In this document: positions 1-38,920 of the stretch, piece by piece
Position numbering within the stretch: position 1 is the first letter of the stretch
Layout: each line of letters begins with the position of its first letter
Source of the DNA: a virus
Virus record (IMG/VR): IMGVR_UViG_3300042465_008100
Coordinates: 1-64,000 of that record
Direction: 5' to 3' (one strand)
DNA length: 64,000 bases
Position numbers and translations under genes: made by a program
Notes under the pieces: generated by a model
What the model was told of the DNA's origin: nothing
Databases searched by the model: none
Seen by the model: only the letters and a program-made list of their open reading frames with translations

Positions 1-950
1 GTGATGATGAAATCGAAATCGTAGGCGATGAAATTCGTTTGAATGTTAGCGAGCCAGGAGAGTATGTAGTTAAACTTAACCAAACTTCAGAACCAATTGA
101 TGGTGATGAGGATGAATTAGATTTGGAACCAATGGGTGGTGATGATGAAGAAGAATTAGATTTGGAACCAATGGGTGACGAGGATGATGAAGATGAATTA
201 GGGCCAATGGGTGGTGAAGAAGAAGATGAAGAAGGTGATGATGTTGACTACGAAATAGAATTAGATGACGAATCTGATGATGAAGAAGAATCTGAAGAAG
301 AGGAAGAAGAATCTGAAGAAGAAGAATCTGAAGAAATGGAAGAAGAATCTGAAATTTCTGAAGAAATGGAAGAAGAAACTGATACTGTAGATGAAAGAAT
401 TGCAAACACAACTGCTGCTCGTTTGGGTGGTAATCGTGCTGTTCCTTCTTTTAAATCAACAGGTGCTCCTGAGAACCCTAAAAGAACAAATGAATCAATC
501 GTTGAGAAAGCTAAATCAATGGTTAACGAAGCTGCTAAAAAATATAATTCATTATTAAGTGAAGCTACTAAATTGAAAGCTGAGAATAATGAGTTTAAAA
601 GCGCTTTAAAAGAGTTCAGAACAAAATTAGTTGAAACAGTAGTATTTAATTCAAATCTTACTTATGTAACTAAATTGTTCATGGAACATTCAACCACAAA
701 AGCTGAAAAACAAAATATAATTAAAAGATTTGATGAAGAGGTAACAACTCTTAAAGAATCTAAAAAGTTGTACAAAACTATTGCTAACGAATTGGAAACA
801 AGAAAACCAATTAGTGAGTCAGTAGGAAATAAAATAATTAAGGAATCAACATCTAGCGTGTCAAAACAATTAAACGAAAGCACAGCTTATGTTGACCCGT
901 CAACTCAAAGAATTAAAGATTTAATTAGTAGAGTTGAAAATAGAGATTAA
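1..950 (+). CDS. Prohead core scaffolding protein (gp22-like), 5' partial
   Basis: The reading frame is open from the first bases of the window, so the start lies upstream. The first ~120 visible residues are extremely acidic, with repeated D/E-rich blocks containing LDLEPMG. A basic linker and a predicted coiled-coil of about 180 residues follow. An acidic, helical protein directly upstream of the major capsid gene is where T4-like phages encode the internal scaffold (gp22), which is assembled inside the prohead and then degraded by the prohead protease. Several LxE sites (LLSE, LNES) could be cleaved. The role is inferred from position and composition; I see no diagnostic motif. An acidic domain fused to a protease-like core is less likely because no catalytic motif is visible. 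Confidence 0.6.
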   Translation, partial: DDEIEIVGDEIRLNVSEPGEYVVKLNQTSEPIDGDEDELDLEPMGGDDEEELDLEPMGDEDDEDELGPMGGEEEDEEGDDVDYEIELDDESDDEEESEEEEEESEEEESEEMEEESEISEEMEEETDTVDERIANTTAARLGGNRAVPSFKSTGAPENPKRTNESIVEKAKSMVNEAAKKYNSLLSEATKLKAENNEFKSALKEFRTKLVETVVFNSNLTYVTKLFMEHSTTKAEKQNIIKRFDEEVTTLKESKKLYKTIANELETRKPISESVGNKIIKESTSSVSKQLNESTAYVDPSTQRIKDLISRVENRD

Positions 951-983: not shown

Positions 984-2861
984 ATGTCACATTTATTAAC
1001 ATCTGGACAAGTTGGGAACATCGGATTAAACCACATGAAAGCAATCCGTAAAGAAACCCAATCAAAATGGGATAGCTTAGGCTTCCTAGACGGTCTTAAA
1101 GGACACGTTAAAGAAAACATCGCTCAGTTATTTGAAAACCAAGCGTCTACATTATTAACTGAAGCTACTAACGCAACATCTTCTGGTTCTTTTGAAACAG
1201 TTGTGTTCCCGATTGTACGTAGAGTTTTCTCTAAATTATTAGCTAACGATATCGTATCGGTACAAGCTATGAACATGCCAATTGGTAAATTGTTCTACTT
1301 CGTTCCATTGACTTCATCTCGTGTAGATGCTGCTGGTAACACTGGTAACGATTATGATGGTACTAGTGCAACTAATGCTACTTATGGTACAGCTTATTCA
1401 GCACACACTAGTATGGCTAACCAAGGAATCCCTTCTTGTGTATTGCCTGCTGCTGGTACATGTGTAACTACACCATGGATGGCTAAAAACTTGTATGATA
1501 TTTTCTACAACGATGGTATGTTTGATAACTCAAAAGGTACTCTTACTATTAGAACTTATACACTTCTTAACACAAATGCAATTGCTTTAGGTAACGGAAC
1601 TGTTACAACACCTACAACATGGGCAACAGCTGCTGACGGTACTGTTAGATATGCAATGTTTGCTATGAGTGGATTTACTGGTGGTGCTGGTTCACCTGCT
1701 GGTCGTGAAGTATTGACAGGTCCTGATGGAAACAACATGGATACTGAATCTTTCTTGGCTTCATTACATTGTGTTACTGCGGCTAACATTTATGACCGTG
1801 ATGGTAACGTTATCGTTGCTGCTGGACAAGAAGTTCCTTTCCGTATCGTAACACAACAATATGGTAAAGCAATTGTTCAAACAACAAATAATAACGCTAG
1901 TGGTTACCCAGTATTGACTACACCAAATGGTGTTATGTATGTTGAATTAGACCTTTCTCACCCAGTTGGTACAACTGCAACAGGAACGGCTAACGCTGGT
2001 ACATCAACTTACGATGGTTATGTAGGTGCTTCTGCAACAACTGTTACAGCTATCACGACTGGTAATAACTTAGTATTTGGATGGGCTGAATATGCAACAT
2101 TAGAATTCGAAACTGAATTGGCTGAAGTGTCTTTCAGATTGGATGAAGTTGTTGTAGCTGTTGAAGAAAGAAAATTACGTGCTACTTGGTCACCAGAATT
2201 GGCTCAAGATGTTAGTGCATTCCACAACATCGATGCTGAAGCTGAATTGACAGCTATGTTGTCAGAGCAAGTTGCTGCTGAGATTGACCGTGAGATTTTA
2301 CGTGACTTACGTAAAGCTGCTGCATGGCAAATGCGTTGGGATTACAATGGTTGGAGAAAAGCTCAAACTGCTAGTACCCCATATACACAAAAAGACTGGA
2401 ATCAAACACTTATCACTAAGTTGAACCAAATTTCAGCACAAATCCACAAATCTACATTGAGAGGTGGTGCTAACTTTATCGTGGTTTCTTCTGAAATCTC
2501 AGCTATTTTTGATGATTTAGAATACTTCCACGTATCTGATGCTAATCCAGAGCAAGACCAATACAACATGGGTATTGAGAGAATTGGTTCATTAAGCGGA
2601 CGTTACCAAGTGTACCGTGACCCTTATGCACCAGCTTACTCAGTAATCATCGGTCATAAAGGTAAATCATTGTTAGATACAGGTTATATTTACGCACCAT
2701 ACGTGCCGTTACAATTAACTCCAACAATGTACAATCCATTTAACTTTGCTCCAGTTAAAGGTATCATGACACGTTATGCTAAAAAAGTGGTTAACAATCG
2801 TTTCTACGGTGCAATCCGTGTAGATGGTGTTCCAACATTTAACATCAACGAATTAAGATAA
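984..2861 (+). CDS. Major capsid protein (T4 gp23-like)
   Basis: This 625-residue protein forms the capsid shell. The segment IVRRVFSKLLANDIVSVQAM (about residues 70-90) matches the gp23 block that follows the maturation cleavage (MVRRAIPNLIAFDICGVQPM in T4). It follows ENIAQLFENQ and LLTE|A, which places prohead protease cleavage after Glu60, close to the T4 site after Glu65. It is longer than T4 gp23 (521 aa); the excess is a Gly/Thr/Ala-rich insertion around residues 115-360, probably a surface-exposed domain. The gene is 33 nt downstream of the scaffold gene and is followed by a strong terminator. Its codons are more GC-rich than those of its neighbours (many -C and -G endings), as expected for a highly expressed gene. 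Confidence 0.93.
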   Translation: MSHLLTSGQVGNIGLNHMKAIRKETQSKWDSLGFLDGLKGHVKENIAQLFENQASTLLTEATNATSSGSFETVVFPIVRRVFSKLLANDIVSVQAMNMPIGKLFYFVPLTSSRVDAAGNTGNDYDGTSATNATYGTAYSAHTSMANQGIPSCVLPAAGTCVTTPWMAKNLYDIFYNDGMFDNSKGTLTIRTYTLLNTNAIALGNGTVTTPTTWATAADGTVRYAMFAMSGFTGGAGSPAGREVLTGPDGNNMDTESFLASLHCVTAANIYDRDGNVIVAAGQEVPFRIVTQQYGKAIVQTTNNNASGYPVLTTPNGVMYVELDLSHPVGTTATGTANAGTSTYDGYVGASATTVTAITTGNNLVFGWAEYATLEFETELAEVSFRLDEVVVAVEERKLRATWSPELAQDVSAFHNIDAEAELTAMLSEQVAAEIDREILRDLRKAAAWQMRWDYNGWRKAQTASTPYTQKDWNQTLITKLNQISAQIHKSTLRGGANFIVVSSEISAIFDDLEYFHVSDANPEQDQYNMGIERIGSLSGRYQVYRDPYAPAYSVIIGHKGKSLLDTGYIYAPYVPLQLTPTMYNPFNFAPVKGIMTRYAKKVVNNRFYGAIRVDGVPTFNINELR

Positions 2862-2881: not shown

Positions 2882-2915
2882 AAAAGTCTAATCGAAAGGT
2901 TAGACTTTTTTGTTT
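2882..2915 (+). terminator. Intrinsic terminator after the capsid gene
   Basis: A 12-bp stem (AAAAGTCTAATC paired with GGTTAGACTTTT, one T-G pair) closes a GAAA tetraloop and is followed by a T-rich tract. It lies 20 nt after the capsid stop and should end the capsid transcript. Confidence 0.9.
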
Positions 2916-2934: not shown

Positions 2935-4329
2935 ATGAAAGTAGTTATACAAAAGTTATTAAGAGAATGGTTGATTAATGAGGCCGCTTCACCAATAGTT
3001 TACCATTTTACAAGTGTTAATAGGTTGTCTAATATTTTATCAAAAAATGAAATGTTTTTAACTCCAACAATTTCTAGTAGTAATGAGAAAAAAATGTCTG
3101 GTAATAAATTCTATTTTTTATCATTAAGTAGAACTAAAAGTATAACTCATGGTTACGGTACTAAATTTACAAACCCTAATTCAGTAAGAATTAAATTTAA
3201 TGGAAACAAATTAAATAGTAAATATAAAATTAAACCTATTGATTATTGGCAATACCCTAGAACTAAAGATTTTATGGGTGGTATTGGGGATGAAATGGAA
3301 GATAGACTAATGAGTGATAAGAGTAGCATCCCAAATATTAATAATTATATAATTTCTATAGACATTTTTATTGATGAGTCTGGTATTGATGGTAAAATAA
3401 TTTCTTTAGCTAAATCATTAGGGGTTAAACTTAACTTTTTTGATAATAAAAAAGATTTTGCTAGTGGTAATGAGAGTAAAACAATTAACCCTAATATAAA
3501 ATCATCTGATAACAGTGATGACTATAATTCTAGGTTATCTAACAATGATTTAGTCAAAACATTGGCTTCATTATCTTATAAAAACGAAAAATTATTGCAA
3601 GATATAATTTTAAAATTAACAACTGAATTTAATGTAGGAACTGATTTTTCAAATAAACTATATAATAACGTTAAAGAATACCAAGATAAATTAGAATATT
3701 ATTTAAAACCATATAATGGTATGTATGTTGATGATTTTTCTCAATCATTAAGTAGTGAGTTACATAATAGTAAAACTAGTAGTAATGAAGTTGTTAGATA
3801 TTTGACGAATGAATTTATTAAACGATATAAAAGTTTGGGTGCTACTAGTATTAAAGATTTTTTACAAAAATTAATGTATATGGGTAAAAAATCTCAACAA
3901 GATTTTAATAAACAATTTAATAATGACATAATTAAACTGATTGATAAATCATATGTTGAATATTTAGATACATTTAAAACTAGTGGTCACGATTATGATA
4001 ATTACTATGAAAATTTATTTGAGTTACCTCAAATAAAGCAATATTTAGATAGTAAAATAAATGAAATAAAAAAATACGTATCAAATTATATACTAAATAA
4101 TGACGATATGTATCACTATAGTTATGTTTTAAATGACCGTGAGATTTCAGATGCAATTAATTTAAAAGATGATAATAAATTAAAACAAATATTAAATAAA
4201 TTTGAAGATGTTCAATATAATGAAATAATTAAACCAATACAATTTGTTTTGTATGATATTGACGAATTTTACTATAAAGAAGTTAAAAAGTTACAAGACG
4301 AAAATATGAATCAATGGAATAGCAATTAA
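2935..4329 (+). CDS. Putative head-packaged ADP-ribosyltransferase-like protein
   Basis: This protein has 464 residues if it starts at MKVVIQ; an in-frame ATG six codons earlier overlaps the AT-rich motif. The first 16 residues (MKVVIQKLLREWLINE) form an amphipathic helix ending in INE|A, which fits the T4 prohead-protease rule (L/I)xE|A and resembles a capsid-targeting sequence. Next comes YHFTS, a SLSRT segment, VDYW-like IDYWQYP and EMEDR (residues about 18-130). This resembles a phage family with an H-Y-E-type ADP-ribosyltransferase fold (H in YHFTS, E in EMEDR). The remaining ~300 residues are helical and unrecognised. T4 Alt is an unrelated ADP-ribosyltransferase packaged in the same way. 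The fold assignment is tentative, and an inactive ligand-binding relative is possible. Confidence 0.45.
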   Translation: MKVVIQKLLREWLINEAASPIVYHFTSVNRLSNILSKNEMFLTPTISSSNEKKMSGNKFYFLSLSRTKSITHGYGTKFTNPNSVRIKFNGNKLNSKYKIKPIDYWQYPRTKDFMGGIGDEMEDRLMSDKSSIPNINNYIISIDIFIDESGIDGKIISLAKSLGVKLNFFDNKKDFASGNESKTINPNIKSSDNSDDYNSRLSNNDLVKTLASLSYKNEKLLQDIILKLTTEFNVGTDFSNKLYNNVKEYQDKLEYYLKPYNGMYVDDFSQSLSSELHNSKTSSNEVVRYLTNEFIKRYKSLGATSIKDFLQKLMYMGKKSQQDFNKQFNNDIIKLIDKSYVEYLDTFKTSGHDYDNYYENLFELPQIKQYLDSKINEIKKYVSNYILNNDDMYHYSYVLNDREISDAINLKDDNKLKQILNKFEDVQYNEIIKPIQFVLYDIDEFYYKEVKKLQDENMNQWNSN

Positions 4330-5520: not shown

Positions 5521-5859
5521 TTATTCAAAATCTGAACCTTGTTCACAAATTGTTGATTGTATTTGATGCCAATATGTATCAGCTTCATCTGGTAATGAAT
5601 CACCAGACATATGATAATATCTTACTTCATCTCGAATCTTTTTTTGTTCTTGTTTTAAATTAAATAATGGTGCATGTATTTTTTGCATTATTGTTCTTCT
5701 TTTTTCAGGTGTTGCATCTTTCAACGATTCTTCAACATAATGCATAGCTTCTTCATAAGTATTAATGGTCATTTTATTACAAATAGTTTGTGTAGCTTCA
5801 TTCATTTCTTGACCATCAATTATTTGTTCTCTTAATTTTTGTTTTATAAAACTTTTCAT
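5521..5859 (-). CDS. Small protein with putative capsid-targeting leader
   Basis: A 112-residue protein. I chose the ATG one nt after the preceding stop; an ATG eight codons upstream would overlap the tail gene by 23 nt. The N-terminus MKSFIKQKLREQII is amphipathic and resembles the leader of the ADP-ribosyltransferase-like protein. It ends near MNE|A, a plausible T4-type protease site after residue 21. The rest is helical and charged (EEAMHYVEESLKDATPEKR), with no known domain. It is probably a small virion or internal head protein cotranscribed with the tail genes. The function is unknown. Confidence 0.5.
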   Translation of the reverse strand: MKSFIKQKLREQIIDGQEMNEATQTICNKMTINTYEEAMHYVEESLKDATPEKRRTIMQKIHAPLFNLKQEQKKIRDEVRYYHMSGDSLPDEADTYWHQIQSTICEQGSDFE

Positions 5860-15433: not shown

Positions 15434-16375
15434 TTATTTTTTAGCTTTTTGTTCGTACTTTTTATCTAGTTCTTCCATTTTATGTTTTTCTAAAATGTTC
15501 TTACCGTTCAGTTTAACATCAGCAAAAAATTTAACGACATAATTACCATTAAATTCTATAATCTTGTCAAATACTATGTTTTCATAATTGAATTCTAAAA
15601 AGTCTTCAATACCGATACATTTATATGTGACAAATTCAATACCATTCATATCAAAAATGGTTGTTGGTTTATTTTCTTCAAGTATCTTACTTAAATGGTT
15701 AATGAATAATTTACTGTTTTTATTATCATTATGATATTTGCTAAAATAAAACTCTAATAACTTTTTCTTTTTAGTTATTTTTTTAACATTCATTTTTTTA
15801 GCAAAATTTTCAATATAAAATTTTGGTGGTGCATCTCTTAAAATTTTTATAGGCCTTTCAGTTTTGTTTGAAGCTAAGAACTCATCACCAGAAATTTCAG
15901 CAATACTTACACTAGTTAAATTACCTTTATCATCATAATTTTCAATAGTTTCGTCTAATATATTTAGATAATCATTATCTATAGCTTCATTTGCACTTAA
16001 AGATATCTCATCATTTATAATAACCATTTCTAGTGGGTATTCATCATGTTCATCTGTTTTAACTTTTTTAAGCGCAGTTTTTAAGTTTCTTTTTCTAGAA
16101 CTAACTATTGGGTAACCATCATTATCATAACCAACTACTGTTGCAGTAACTTTTTGTGTCTGTTGTAAGATTTTATATGTTCTCCATTTTAAATTTAAAA
16201 CTTCTTCAGTTACTTCACCATGTACTAATGAATCAGCTAACTGTCCTTGTGTGTGTCTTTGGTGTTGACCAACTTCGACATCTAACGTATTATCAGATTG
16301 TGATAATGCATTTTTTTCAACATTACCAATTGACAACATTAAATTTGTTATTTGTTTTTTAAACCAATTTTTCAT
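15434..16375 (-). CDS. Conserved phage protein (313 aa), function unknown
   Basis: The N-terminus is MKNWFKKQITNLMLSIGNVE, followed by a polar segment with QHQRHTQGQLADSLVHGEVTEEVLNLKWR. The middle is beta-rich (VTATVVGYDNDGYPIV) and the C-terminus is lysine-rich (KKYEQKAKK). I believe it belongs to a family seen in large phages, often near PhoH, but no enzymatic motif is visible. Its start overlaps the end of the GMD gene by 17 nt, so it is coupled to the glycan island while probably serving a core phage role. Confidence 0.5.
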   Translation of the reverse strand: MKNWFKKQITNLMLSIGNVEKNALSQSDNTLDVEVGQHQRHTQGQLADSLVHGEVTEEVLNLKWRTYKILQQTQKVTATVVGYDNDGYPIVSSRKRNLKTALKKVKTDEHDEYPLEMVIINDEISLSANEAIDNDYLNILDETIENYDDKGNLTSVSIAEISGDEFLASNKTERPIKILRDAPPKFYIENFAKKMNVKKITKKKKLLEFYFSKYHNDNKNSKLFINHLSKILEENKPTTIFDMNGIEFVTYKCIGIEDFLEFNYENIVFDKIIEFNGNYVVKFFADVKLNGKNILEKHKMEELDKKYEQKAKK

Positions 16376-17372
16376 TTTCTAATATTTTATTTTCACGCAT
16401 TAAATTATTTAACCAATAATTAATCATTTCATCAATCATGGTTTCAAATGTATATTCTGGGGACCACCCTAATATTTTTCTAGCTTTCGATGAATCACCT
16501 TTTAAATAATGTAATTCTTCAGGTCTTTCAAATTTGCCATCCGTTTTAACATAATTATTAGGGTCTAATTCTAACTTATTAAATACATAATTTACTAATT
16601 CAGAAACACTTTTAGAAATACCAGTCGCTAAAACATAATCATCTGGAGTTTCTTGTTGTAACATAAGCCACATTCCTTTTACATAATCTTTAGCGTGACC
16701 CCAATCTCTAAAAGCACTTAAGTTACCTAGGGTTAATTCATTGGATAAACCTAATTTTATTTTAACCGCTTCTAAAACAACTTTATTTGTAACAAAATTA
16801 ATACCCCTTCTTGGGCTTTCATGATTAAATAAAATACCAGAACAAATGAACATGTCATATGCGTTTCTATAGTTACTGCAAAGACTATGCGCATAAAGTT
16901 TGCTACAACCATATGGGCTTACTGGTTTTAATGGTGTTGTTTCTCTTTGGTGCATATCATCATCAAATGAATTACCAAACATTTCTGATGTTGCAGCATG
17001 ATAAACTTTAGATTTGGGTGAAAATTTTCTAACACCTTCTAATATAGCTAAAGTACCACCAGCATTAACATCAAGCGTATATTTTGGTAAATCAAAACTT
17101 ATTTGGACATGACTTTGAGCCGCTAGATGATATATTTCATCTGGTTTTATTTCATTAATAACTGATTCCACACTAATAGGGTCAGTTAAATCCATATAAT
17201 GTAATGTGATTAAATTTTTTGAACGCAAGTGTTCAATTCTTGATGTTTGTGACTCAGGAACTGAATTCCTTCTTATTGTTCCATGAACTTCATAATTTTT
17301 TTCGATTAGCAGTTCACATAAGTAAGAAGCGTCTTGCCCATTTGCCCCAATGATTAATGCTTTTTTTGTCAT
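16359..17372 (-). CDS. gmd: GDP-mannose 4,6-dehydratase
   Basis: A 337-residue short-chain dehydrogenase. The NADP-binding Gly motif is GANGQDASYL at residue 8 (typical GMD: GITGQDGSYL). RRNS at ~36-39 matches the GMD NADP-binding RRSS. The catalytic site is TSEMFG (Ser/Thr and Glu) plus YGCSK (Tyr-x3-Lys). NHESPRRG is the GMD substrate loop. It converts GDP-D-mannose to GDP-4-keto-6-deoxymannose, the precursor of GDP-fucose, GDP-rhamnose and GDP-perosamine. No GDP-fucose synthase, RMD or PerA gene is in the window, so the last step must come from the host or from elsewhere in the genome. It is the last-transcribed enzyme of the island. Confidence 0.9.
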   Translation of the reverse strand: MTKKALIIGANGQDASYLCELLIEKNYEVHGTIRRNSVPESQTSRIEHLRSKNLITLHYMDLTDPISVESVINEIKPDEIYHLAAQSHVQISFDLPKYTLDVNAGGTLAILEGVRKFSPKSKVYHAATSEMFGNSFDDDMHQRETTPLKPVSPYGCSKLYAHSLCSNYRNAYDMFICSGILFNHESPRRGINFVTNKVVLEAVKIKLGLSNELTLGNLSAFRDWGHAKDYVKGMWLMLQQETPDDYVLATGISKSVSELVNYVFNKLELDPNNYVKTDGKFERPEELHYLKGDSSKARKILGWSPEYTFETMIDEMINYWLNNLMRENKILENEKLV

Positions 17373-38443: not shown

Positions 38444-38920
38444 TTATAAATTATTATTCGGTTTTTGACTAATATCACTTCTTTGTCTGGTAAATGTATC
38501 TGGCTTTACTAAATCAATAACGGTTGCCATCGATTTATCACCAGTTTGATTATATGATGGTATATCAACACTATAATCGGAAACTGGATTGTACCATTTA
38601 ACGTTTGTAGGGTACCACCCTTCTATCCTATCGAGCCTAAATATTTTCCAAGCACCAGTTTTTGGTGTTGTTTTGGACCCACCAAATATTTGATACGCTC
38701 TTATTGCCTTATTACCACCTTTAGTAATACTAAAATTATATACTTGTATATAACGTTTACTAGGTGGCTTTTTTTTATAATCTCGATACAATATATTCAC
38801 ATTATATTTACCATTAATAGCTTCTATTACTGATTCTTCTGAAACACTTTCAGTTAGAACAGTTTTAGCGTTATTAATCTCTTCAAATATAATTTGTTCG
38901 TATATATTGTAAAGTTTCAT
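38444..38920 (-). CDS. WYL-like domain protein with possible capsid-targeting leader
   Basis: A 158-residue protein. Residues ~25-115 have the WYL pattern: AINGKYNVNILYRDY, RYIQVYNFSITKGGNKAIRAYQ and GAWKIFRLDRIEGWYP (compare xFRLDRI, the WYL C-terminal hallmark). The N-terminus (MKLYNIYEQIIFEEI) is an amphipathic helix ending near LTE|S and could be a T4-type capsid-targeting leader. WYL domains bind ligands or nucleic acids and regulate transcription, including anti-phage systems. The domain match is by pattern only. Confidence 0.45.
   Translation of the reverse strand: MKLYNIYEQIIFEEINNAKTVLTESVSEESVIEAINGKYNVNILYRDYKKKPPSKRYIQVYNFSITKGGNKAIRAYQIFGGSKTTPKTGAWKIFRLDRIEGWYPTNVKWYNPVSDYSVDIPSYNQTGDKSMATVIDLVKPDTFTRQRSDISQKPNNNL

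What the first reader, a model, noticed from the sequence alone, without database searches (positions are those of the whole stretch)
2935..4329. Possible head-packaged ADP-ribosyltransferase, an analogue of T4 Alt
Seen: the first 16 residues, MKVVIQKLLREWLINE, are amphipathic and end in INE|A, which fits the T4 prohead protease rule. They precede YHFTS...EMEDR, which matches an ART-like (H-Y-E) pattern. The gene lies alone after the capsid terminator. Known: T4 Alt is packaged through a similar leader and modifies host RNA polymerase. Inference: a different ART family has taken the same ecological role here.
Basis: partly seen in the sequence, partly recalled or inferred. Interest (0 to 1): 0.65.

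Follow-up and report, generated by a model that had tools for sequence, protein, structure and literature searches.

The report
Predicted head-packaged phage ADP-ribosyltransferase, new family
A T4-like phage carries, next to its capsid gene, an enzyme-like protein with an ADP-ribosyltransferase fold and a short removable tag of the kind T4 uses to load proteins into its head, so it is probably injected with the DNA to modify the host cell, although neither packaging nor activity has yet been shown.

Summary
ORF 2935-4329 lies downstream of a gp23-type capsid gene and a strong terminator. Residues 17-190 form a confidently predicted ADP-ribosyltransferase (ART) fold, closest to DarT and Tpt1/KptA. 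Its conserved residues are H24, S63, E120-x-E122 and R124, so it is not a plain H-Y-E enzyme. The family occurs in at least 30 phage genomes. No Pfam, NCBIfam, PHROG or PADLOC model names it, and T4 Alt is not a sequence relative. The leader MKVVIQKLLREWLINE|A behaves like a T4 capsid-targeting sequence. A Glu sits eight residues before the active-site His in relatives from all 14 genomes with a T4-type (S77) prohead protease, and is missing in the named phages lacking that protease. Unrelated proteins of the same phages share the leader. In phage Atu_ph07, leader-bearing ORFs concentrate in published virion-protein gene clusters (23/140 against 7/191, p = 7e-5). Best reading: a new ART family, loaded into the head and injected, working like Alt. 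Virion presence, cleavage, NAD activity and target remain unshown, and RNA polymerase as target has no support here. The protease correlation has little phylogenetic power.

The parts
39..950 (+). gp22-like acidic scaffold/core gene (5' end cut by the contig start); contains six [LIV]xE|[AS] motifs (VNEA, LSEA, LKES, ISES, IKES, LNES)
   Evidence: position before gp23 and motif content; no family match
984..2861 (+). major capsid protein, T4 gp23 family; only [LI]xE[ASG] motif is LTE|A at residues 58-61, the place equivalent to T4 FLTE|A
   Evidence: Pfam Gp23 5.4e-74; motif; T4 comparison
2882..2909 (+). intrinsic terminator between capsid gene and the ART gene
   Evidence: z -6.4
2935..4329 (+). 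ART-fold gene, 464 aa (P0001)
   Evidence: family alignments
2935..2982 (+). leader peptide, residues 1-16, MKVVIQKLLREWLINE; predicted capsid-targeting sequence, predicted cut INE|A after 2982
   Evidence: low-confidence helix outside the fold; shared with relatives and with unrelated neighbours
2983..3504 (+). ART domain, residues 17-190; H24 at 3004-3006, S63 at 3121-3123, R66 at 3130-3132, D103 at 3241-3243, E120 at 3292-3294, E122 at 3298-3300, R124 at 3304-3306
   Evidence: AF2 pLDDT 86.5, pTM 0.83; fold matches; conservation
3523..4326 (+). C-terminal mostly helical region, residues 197-464, shared full length by L011, L022 and L079; fold not assigned
5521..5859 (-). second window ORF with a similar N-terminus (MKSFIKQKLREQIIDGQEMNE|A), 112 aa, possible further packaged protein

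Best explanation
The gene encodes a new family of phage ADP-ribosyltransferase that is loaded into the prohead by a 16-residue N-terminal capsid-targeting sequence. The T4-type prohead protease then trims it after INE-16, and it is injected with the genome, where the mature enzyme (from A17) uses NAD+ to modify a host macromolecule at the start of infection. Shown here: the gene, the ART fold at model level, the conserved active-site residues, and a leader that is modular and conserved among T4-headed phages. Inferred: packaging, cleavage, injection, catalysis and target. The DarT/KptA-like fold makes a nucleic acid a somewhat likelier substrate than a protein, but that last step is a guess.
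For: Fold: domain model pLDDT 86.5, pTM 0.83. Foldseek's seven best hits are DarT (best E 3.4e-4, prob 1.00). VIA-align: Tpt1 7yw4 Z 10.6 (107 aligned, 2.1 A), DarT 7yk3 Z 9.6 (145 aligned, 3.5 A), and every one of the 50 rows is an ART. Active site: S63, D103, E120, E122, R124 invariant and H24, R66 at least 90% conserved over 28 sequences. Leader: the same-spaced Glu in all 14 S77-bearing genomes and in 4 of 11 others. Capsid proteins of the same genomes carry like sites at the T4 position: window LTE|A, LR756508 LKE|A, Vibrio LNE|A, SCTP-2 LKE|S, Slickus ISE|S. The leader is shared by unrelated proteins: in L079 and L022 the neighbouring gene also starts MK-LIK-LLRE, and in Slickus01 at least eight genes between 86.7 and 97.4 kb do so, several of this family plus one ART-PolyVal protein. 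Whole-genome enrichment at N-termini: Slickus 13.4% against about 5.5% at internal control positions, SCTP-2 9.5% against about 4.9%, Lu11 (no S77) 6.0% against 5.5%. Atu_ph07: 23/140 in clusters rich in MS-confirmed virion proteins against 7/191 outside, p 6.9e-5 (PMC6102473); S77 present. Precedent: T4 Alt is cut by gp21 at ITE-6 (PMC5694885).
Against: No direct evidence that this protein or any leader-bearing homologue is in a virion or is cut. The window contig starts inside the core gene, so its own protease was not seen. On the family tree the Glu changes only 4 times and only 3 independent supported pairs exist, so the leader-protease association has little phylogenetic power. Four S77-negative contigs keep the Glu; they may be fragments. 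P1' is K, R or I in several relatives, unlike typical T4 sites. Within the window, leader-type N-termini are not clearly enriched. Fold similarity does not show activity.
Confidence: 0.66

Rival explanations
1. An ART of this family that is made after infection (early or late gene product, like T4 ModA/ModB) and is not packaged; the N-terminal helix is simply part of the protein.
For: Homologues in Salmondvirus JA29, Sen-NF and RHph_I42 have no E-leader, so the enzyme works without one. DarT1 also has a short helix before its first strand. The Glu keeps a fixed spacing to the His, which a structural role could explain.
Against: The leader is modelled outside the fold with low confidence, is shared by unrelated proteins of the same phages and goes with the T4-type protease. 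The window gene lies right behind the capsid gene in the late head region.
Confidence: 0.22
2. A toxin-antitoxin or superinfection-exclusion ART, paired with a neighbouring antidote.
For: Nearest folds include the toxin DarT; weak sub-threshold match to polymorphic-toxin Tox-ART-HYD1.
Against: No conserved partner gene next to the family; neighbourhoods differ among phages and no macro, NADAR or ARG gene is annotated beside it. Tandem arrays of the family do not fit a TA pair. Neighbours were not searched systematically with antitoxin profiles.
Confidence: 0.06
3. A structural or core protein that has an ART fold but is catalytically dead, for example a minor vertex or internal protein in the gp24 position behind gp23.
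For: In T4 the structural gene behind gp23 is the vertex protein gp24, also with a short leader MAKINELLRE|S.
Against: No similarity to gp24 or any head family; active-site residues are the most conserved positions of the family; in most relatives the gene is far from gp23.
Confidence: 0.06

Closest known systems
T4 Alt (phrog_802)
   Same: Short N-terminal leader ending in IxE (ITE-6 in Alt, INE-16 here), E-x-E motif with the same EME letters, T4-type head, predicted early delivery
   Different: No sequence similarity to phrog_802; motif I is His, not Arg; gene sits behind gp23 instead of in the alt region; no RNA polymerase evidence; 464 aa against 682 aa
DarT (PF14487), DarT1/DarT2 DNA ADP-ribosyltransferases
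   Same: Closest full-domain fold (Foldseek E 3.4e-4, Z 8-9.6), HxT first motif, a conserved Ser where DarT1 also has Ser in place of the class Tyr (mapping inferred), catalytic-type Glu
   Different: No match to the DarT profile; about 10% identity; phage gene with packaging leader and helical C-terminus; DNA as substrate untested
Tpt1/KptA tRNA 2'-phosphotransferase
   Same: Best VIA-align Z (10.6) over the core ART fold; HxT motif
   Different: Lacks the N-terminal lobe of Tpt1/KptA; has an invariant ExE; no RNA-repair context
T4 internal proteins IPI-IPIII and the capsid-targeting sequence
   Same: 10-20 residue leader with (L/I)xE cut shared by otherwise unrelated proteins; T4-type prohead protease and gp23 in the genomes of the family
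   Different: Different leader letters; packaging and cleavage not yet shown
Head-packaged ARTs predicted by Iyer, Aravind and co-workers (PMC9503650; Pfam ART-PolyVal)
   Same: Same general idea: ARTs carried in myovirus heads and injected
   Different: The families they name most often are N4-like, PART, ORF28, p0068, Alt/VIP2 and Mod; this family is not named in the text read, but the supplement could not be opened, so it might be listed there

Membership tests
ADP-ribosyltransferase superfamily | Split beta-sheet ART fold | tested here: met
   all 50 rows of the domain search are ARTs; best Foldseek E 3.4e-4
ADP-ribosyltransferase superfamily | Conserved motif I (H or R) and catalytic Glu at the start of the fifth core strand | tested here: met
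   H24 at least 90% conserved, E120 and E122 invariant at the start of strand 122-127
ADP-ribosyltransferase superfamily | NAD+-dependent ADP-ribosyl transfer | not testable with these tools
   needs purified protein
T4 Alt family (phrog_802) | Sequence match to the Alt profile | tested here: not met
   no phrog_802 at E <= 10; none in the window record; T4 control E 1.9e-264
T4 Alt family (phrog_802) | R-S-E active site | tested here: not met
   motif I is His in the family
T4 Alt family (phrog_802) | Packaged, cut by gp21 after a short leader | tested here: inconclusive
   leader and comparative evidence only
DarT (PF14487) | Match to DarT profile | tested here: not met
   no match in the window record (control genome rings); none
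DarT (PF14487) | DarT-like fold over the whole domain | tested here: met
   Z 8.2-9.6 over 138-146 residues
DarT (PF14487) | Adjacent DarG macro or NADAR antitoxin | not tested
   none annotated beside homologues, but not searched with profiles
Tpt1/KptA | N-terminal lobe preceding the ART domain | tested here: not met
   only about 20 residues precede the first ART strand; alignments to full-length Tpt1 chains start near their residue 85 or later
Tox-ART-HYD1 (PF15633) | Score above Pfam cut-off | tested here: not met
   17.8 bits against cut-off 25
T4-type capsid-targeting-sequence protein | 10-20 residue N-terminal leader ending in (L/I)xE | tested here: met
   MKVVIQKLLREWLINE, 16 residues; conserved in relatives
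T4-type capsid-targeting-sequence protein | Genome encodes S77 prohead protease and gp23 | tested here: inconclusive
   gp23 present; contig begins too late to show gp21; both present in relative G001 (L011, 48% identical domain)
T4-type capsid-targeting-sequence protein | Found processed in virions | not testable with these tools
   needs virion mass spectrometry

The most novel reading that the evidence does not exclude
T4-headed jumbo and environmental phages use a sequence-readable, lineage-specific N-terminal tag to load a whole arsenal of injected effectors. This protein belongs to a hitherto unnamed DarT-like ART family in that arsenal and ADP-ribosylates host nucleic acid, not RNA polymerase, in the first moments of infection.
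Probability: 0.3. Interest if true: 0.75.

Novelty: new variant of a known kind. Interest (0 to 1): 0.57.

Why it matters
T4 Alt is the textbook head-packaged ART, and others have been predicted mainly from gene neighbourhood or MuF fusions. Here an unrelated ART family carries a T4-style leader, and the leader appears to be a general tag. If right, one can read from sequence alone which of the many unknown genes of T4-headed phages make proteins injected with the DNA, and one gets a new family of early host-modifying enzymes to assay.

Tried and rejected
Curated family libraries: Pfam, PHROGs, NCBIfam and PADLOC give nothing above cut-off for the window protein (one PADLOC hit PDC-M24A at 2e-5 for one member of the alignment was not found again in six members scanned singly). 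Profile search of the PDB by sequence: only a weak DarT1 match with one alignment (E 0.11) and none with the larger one, so kinship with DarT rests on fold. Synteny with gp23 as a family rule was rejected: close in the window and in L011, far in most others. Replacement of Alt in every genome was rejected: Vibrio phages have both. A phylogenetically corrected test of leader against protease is underpowered. Cellular relatives: the one genome-contig scan found none, but it used only two short patterns. Published virion proteome lists (supplements) could not be opened; only the cluster statement in the main text of PMC6102473 was used.

Full report
What is there. The window is the first 64,000 bases of a 65,760-base viral contig. 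It opens with an acidic core-like gene (39-950) and a capsid gene of the T4 gp23 family (984-2861; Pfam Gp23, E 5.4e-74). A strong terminator follows (2882-2909; z -6.4), then the gene in question, 2935-4329, 464 aa. The next genes run on the other strand.

The enzyme part. tblastn against phages found 35 records with a conserved N-terminal region: Salicola SCTP-2, Alishewanella Slickus01/Slicko01 (several adjacent copies), Vibrio 6E35-type, Pseudomonas Lu11 and HRDY3, Dickeya JA-type, Rhizobium, Salmonella Sen-NF and an uncultured huge phage. Scans of viral contigs added about 25 more loci, the nearest being L011 and L079 (48-50% identical in the domain) and L022 (36%). Over 28 sequences the domain keeps S63, D103, E120, E122 and R124 without exception, and H24 and R66 in at least 90% (L022 has no Arg at 66 and L013 has Tyr for His). 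AlphaFold2 gave a confident domain (pLDDT 86.5, pTM 0.83). Foldseek's best hits are DarT (E 3.4e-4). VIA-align ranks Tpt1 (Z 10.6) and DarT (Z 8.2-9.6) first, and all 50 rows are ARTs. The same came out with the full-length model. The fold is therefore settled at the level of prediction. The class is not H-Y-E: the middle motif is F/Y-L-S-x-x-R. In DarT1 the equivalent Tyr position also holds a Ser, and its H17-F18-T19 contacts NAD (PMC11543638), which resembles H24-F25-T26 here; that residue mapping is inference, because no residue-level structural alignment was printed.

Not a known family. No library model reaches its cut-off for the window protein. The Alt profile (phrog_802) finds T4 Alt (E 1.9e-264) and an Alt in both Vibrio phages, but nothing in the window record or in the other relatives tested, apart from a trace in RHph_I42 (E 0.0025). 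Hence the relation to Alt is one of likely role, not descent, and in the Vibrio phages both occur together.

The leader. Four lines of evidence make it look like a capsid-targeting sequence. (1) Position and sequence: in leader-bearing relatives a Glu lies exactly eight residues before the His, preceded by L/I/F-x and usually followed by A, S or G. The helix is modelled apart from the fold. (2) Protease: the T4-type prohead protease (S77) was found in 14 genomes and all have this Glu. Of 11 large genomes without a detectable S77, 7 lack it and 4 (metagenomic contigs) keep it (Fisher p 7e-4). In named phages the split is perfect (p 0.002 for 6 against 5). The tree shows only four changes, so the test is weak once descent is allowed for; no independent pair went the other way. 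Capsid proteins of the same genomes carry LxE/IxE sites at the T4 cleavage position. (3) Modularity: unrelated proteins of one phage share the same leader. L079 and L022 have a neighbour starting MK-LIK-LLRE; the window has a second ORF (5521-5859) starting MKSFIKQKLREQII; Slickus01 has an array including one ART-PolyVal protein (E 4e-11). The motif is enriched at N-termini in Slickus01 (13.4% against about 5.5% at internal positions) and SCTP-2 (9.5% against about 4.9%), but not in Lu11, which lacks S77 (6.0% against 5.5%). (4) Virion association: in Atu_ph07, which has S77, the paper reports that most MS-identified virion proteins lie in CDS 31-76, 170-215 and 284-329 (PMC6102473). Motif-bearing ORFs are 23 of 140 inside these clusters (the third searched only up to 250 kb) and 7 of 191 outside (p 6.9e-5), with no consistent difference at internal control positions. 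Precedent: T4 Alt loses its first six residues at ITE and the internal proteins carry 10-20 residue leaders (PMC5694885; PMC9958956).

How it probably works. Core assembly takes the protein into the prohead by the leader; gp21-like protease trims it after INE-16; DNA is packed around it; on infection it is ejected with the DNA and its ART domain modifies a host target using NAD+. Only the anatomy is shown. The target is open: nucleic acid (DarT/KptA-like fold) or a protein (as for Alt). The C-terminal 270 residues, mostly helical and shared full length only with L011, L022 and L079, may select the target; this is a guess.

Limits. No virion data for any member; the protease of this phage lies off the contig; ORFs for the statistics were called mechanically (first ATG, at least 60 aa); the leader regex has a background of about 5%; P1' residues K, R and I in some relatives are unusual for T4-type cleavage. 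The general idea that myoviruses package ARTs is published (PMC9503650). What is added here is an unnamed family and the leader as the sign of packaging. I could not check that paper's supplement for these genes.

Noticed in passing
window 5521-5859 (-): 112-aa ORF with the same type of N-terminus as the ART (MKSFIKQKLREQIIDGQEMNE|A); could be a second packaged protein.
   Followed up: partly
window 38444-38920 (-): 158-aa ORF starting MKLYNIYEQIIFEE with a just sub-threshold WYL match (E 7e-4, 20.0 bits against cut-off 21.8).
   Followed up: partly
window 11.5-37.7 kb (-): Long run of genes that read like glycosyltransferases and nucleotide-sugar enzymes (for example 16359-17372, MTKKALIIGANGQDASYLCELL) between structural gene blocks of a T4-like phage.
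   Followed up: no
L002 (Slickus01 86.6-97.4 kb): Array of adjacent genes beginning MKIDxLYESLLEE or similar with unlike bodies, including several copies of this ART family and one ART-PolyVal protein: looks like an injected-effector island.
   Followed up: partly
L136 (Atu_ph07 39.5-48.8 kb): Tandem paralogues starting M[KR]W[DEH]QLTE|[AS] with a YRG motif, plus a zeta-toxin-like kinase with the same kind of leader, inside a published virion-protein cluster.
   Followed up: partly
L105-L106 (SCTP-2 29.5-42.5 kb): Five or so paralogues starting MKVKHITQYLFESYKDAQ, again a shared leader ending LFE|S.
   Followed up: no
L003, L005, L020: In HRDY3/Lu11-type phages without S77 the ART proteins start M-x-x-x-LA[LV]AG before SSVLYH; possibly another protease's leader.
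   Followed up: no
L015 7158-8858: This ART domain is fused behind a domain with a LHELGH zinc-peptidase motif, and the fusion joint still carries LKE|S.
   Followed up: no
L018 7384-7983: Gene just upstream of the ART (MRVEDLFEGVSKTLYHFTTFDHASGIL) looks like a second, shorter ART-like protein with the same leader; no Pfam match.
   Followed up: partly
L021, L024: Two contigs hold this gene with a broken reading frame (L024 against the intact L022), either real decay or assembly error.
   Followed up: no
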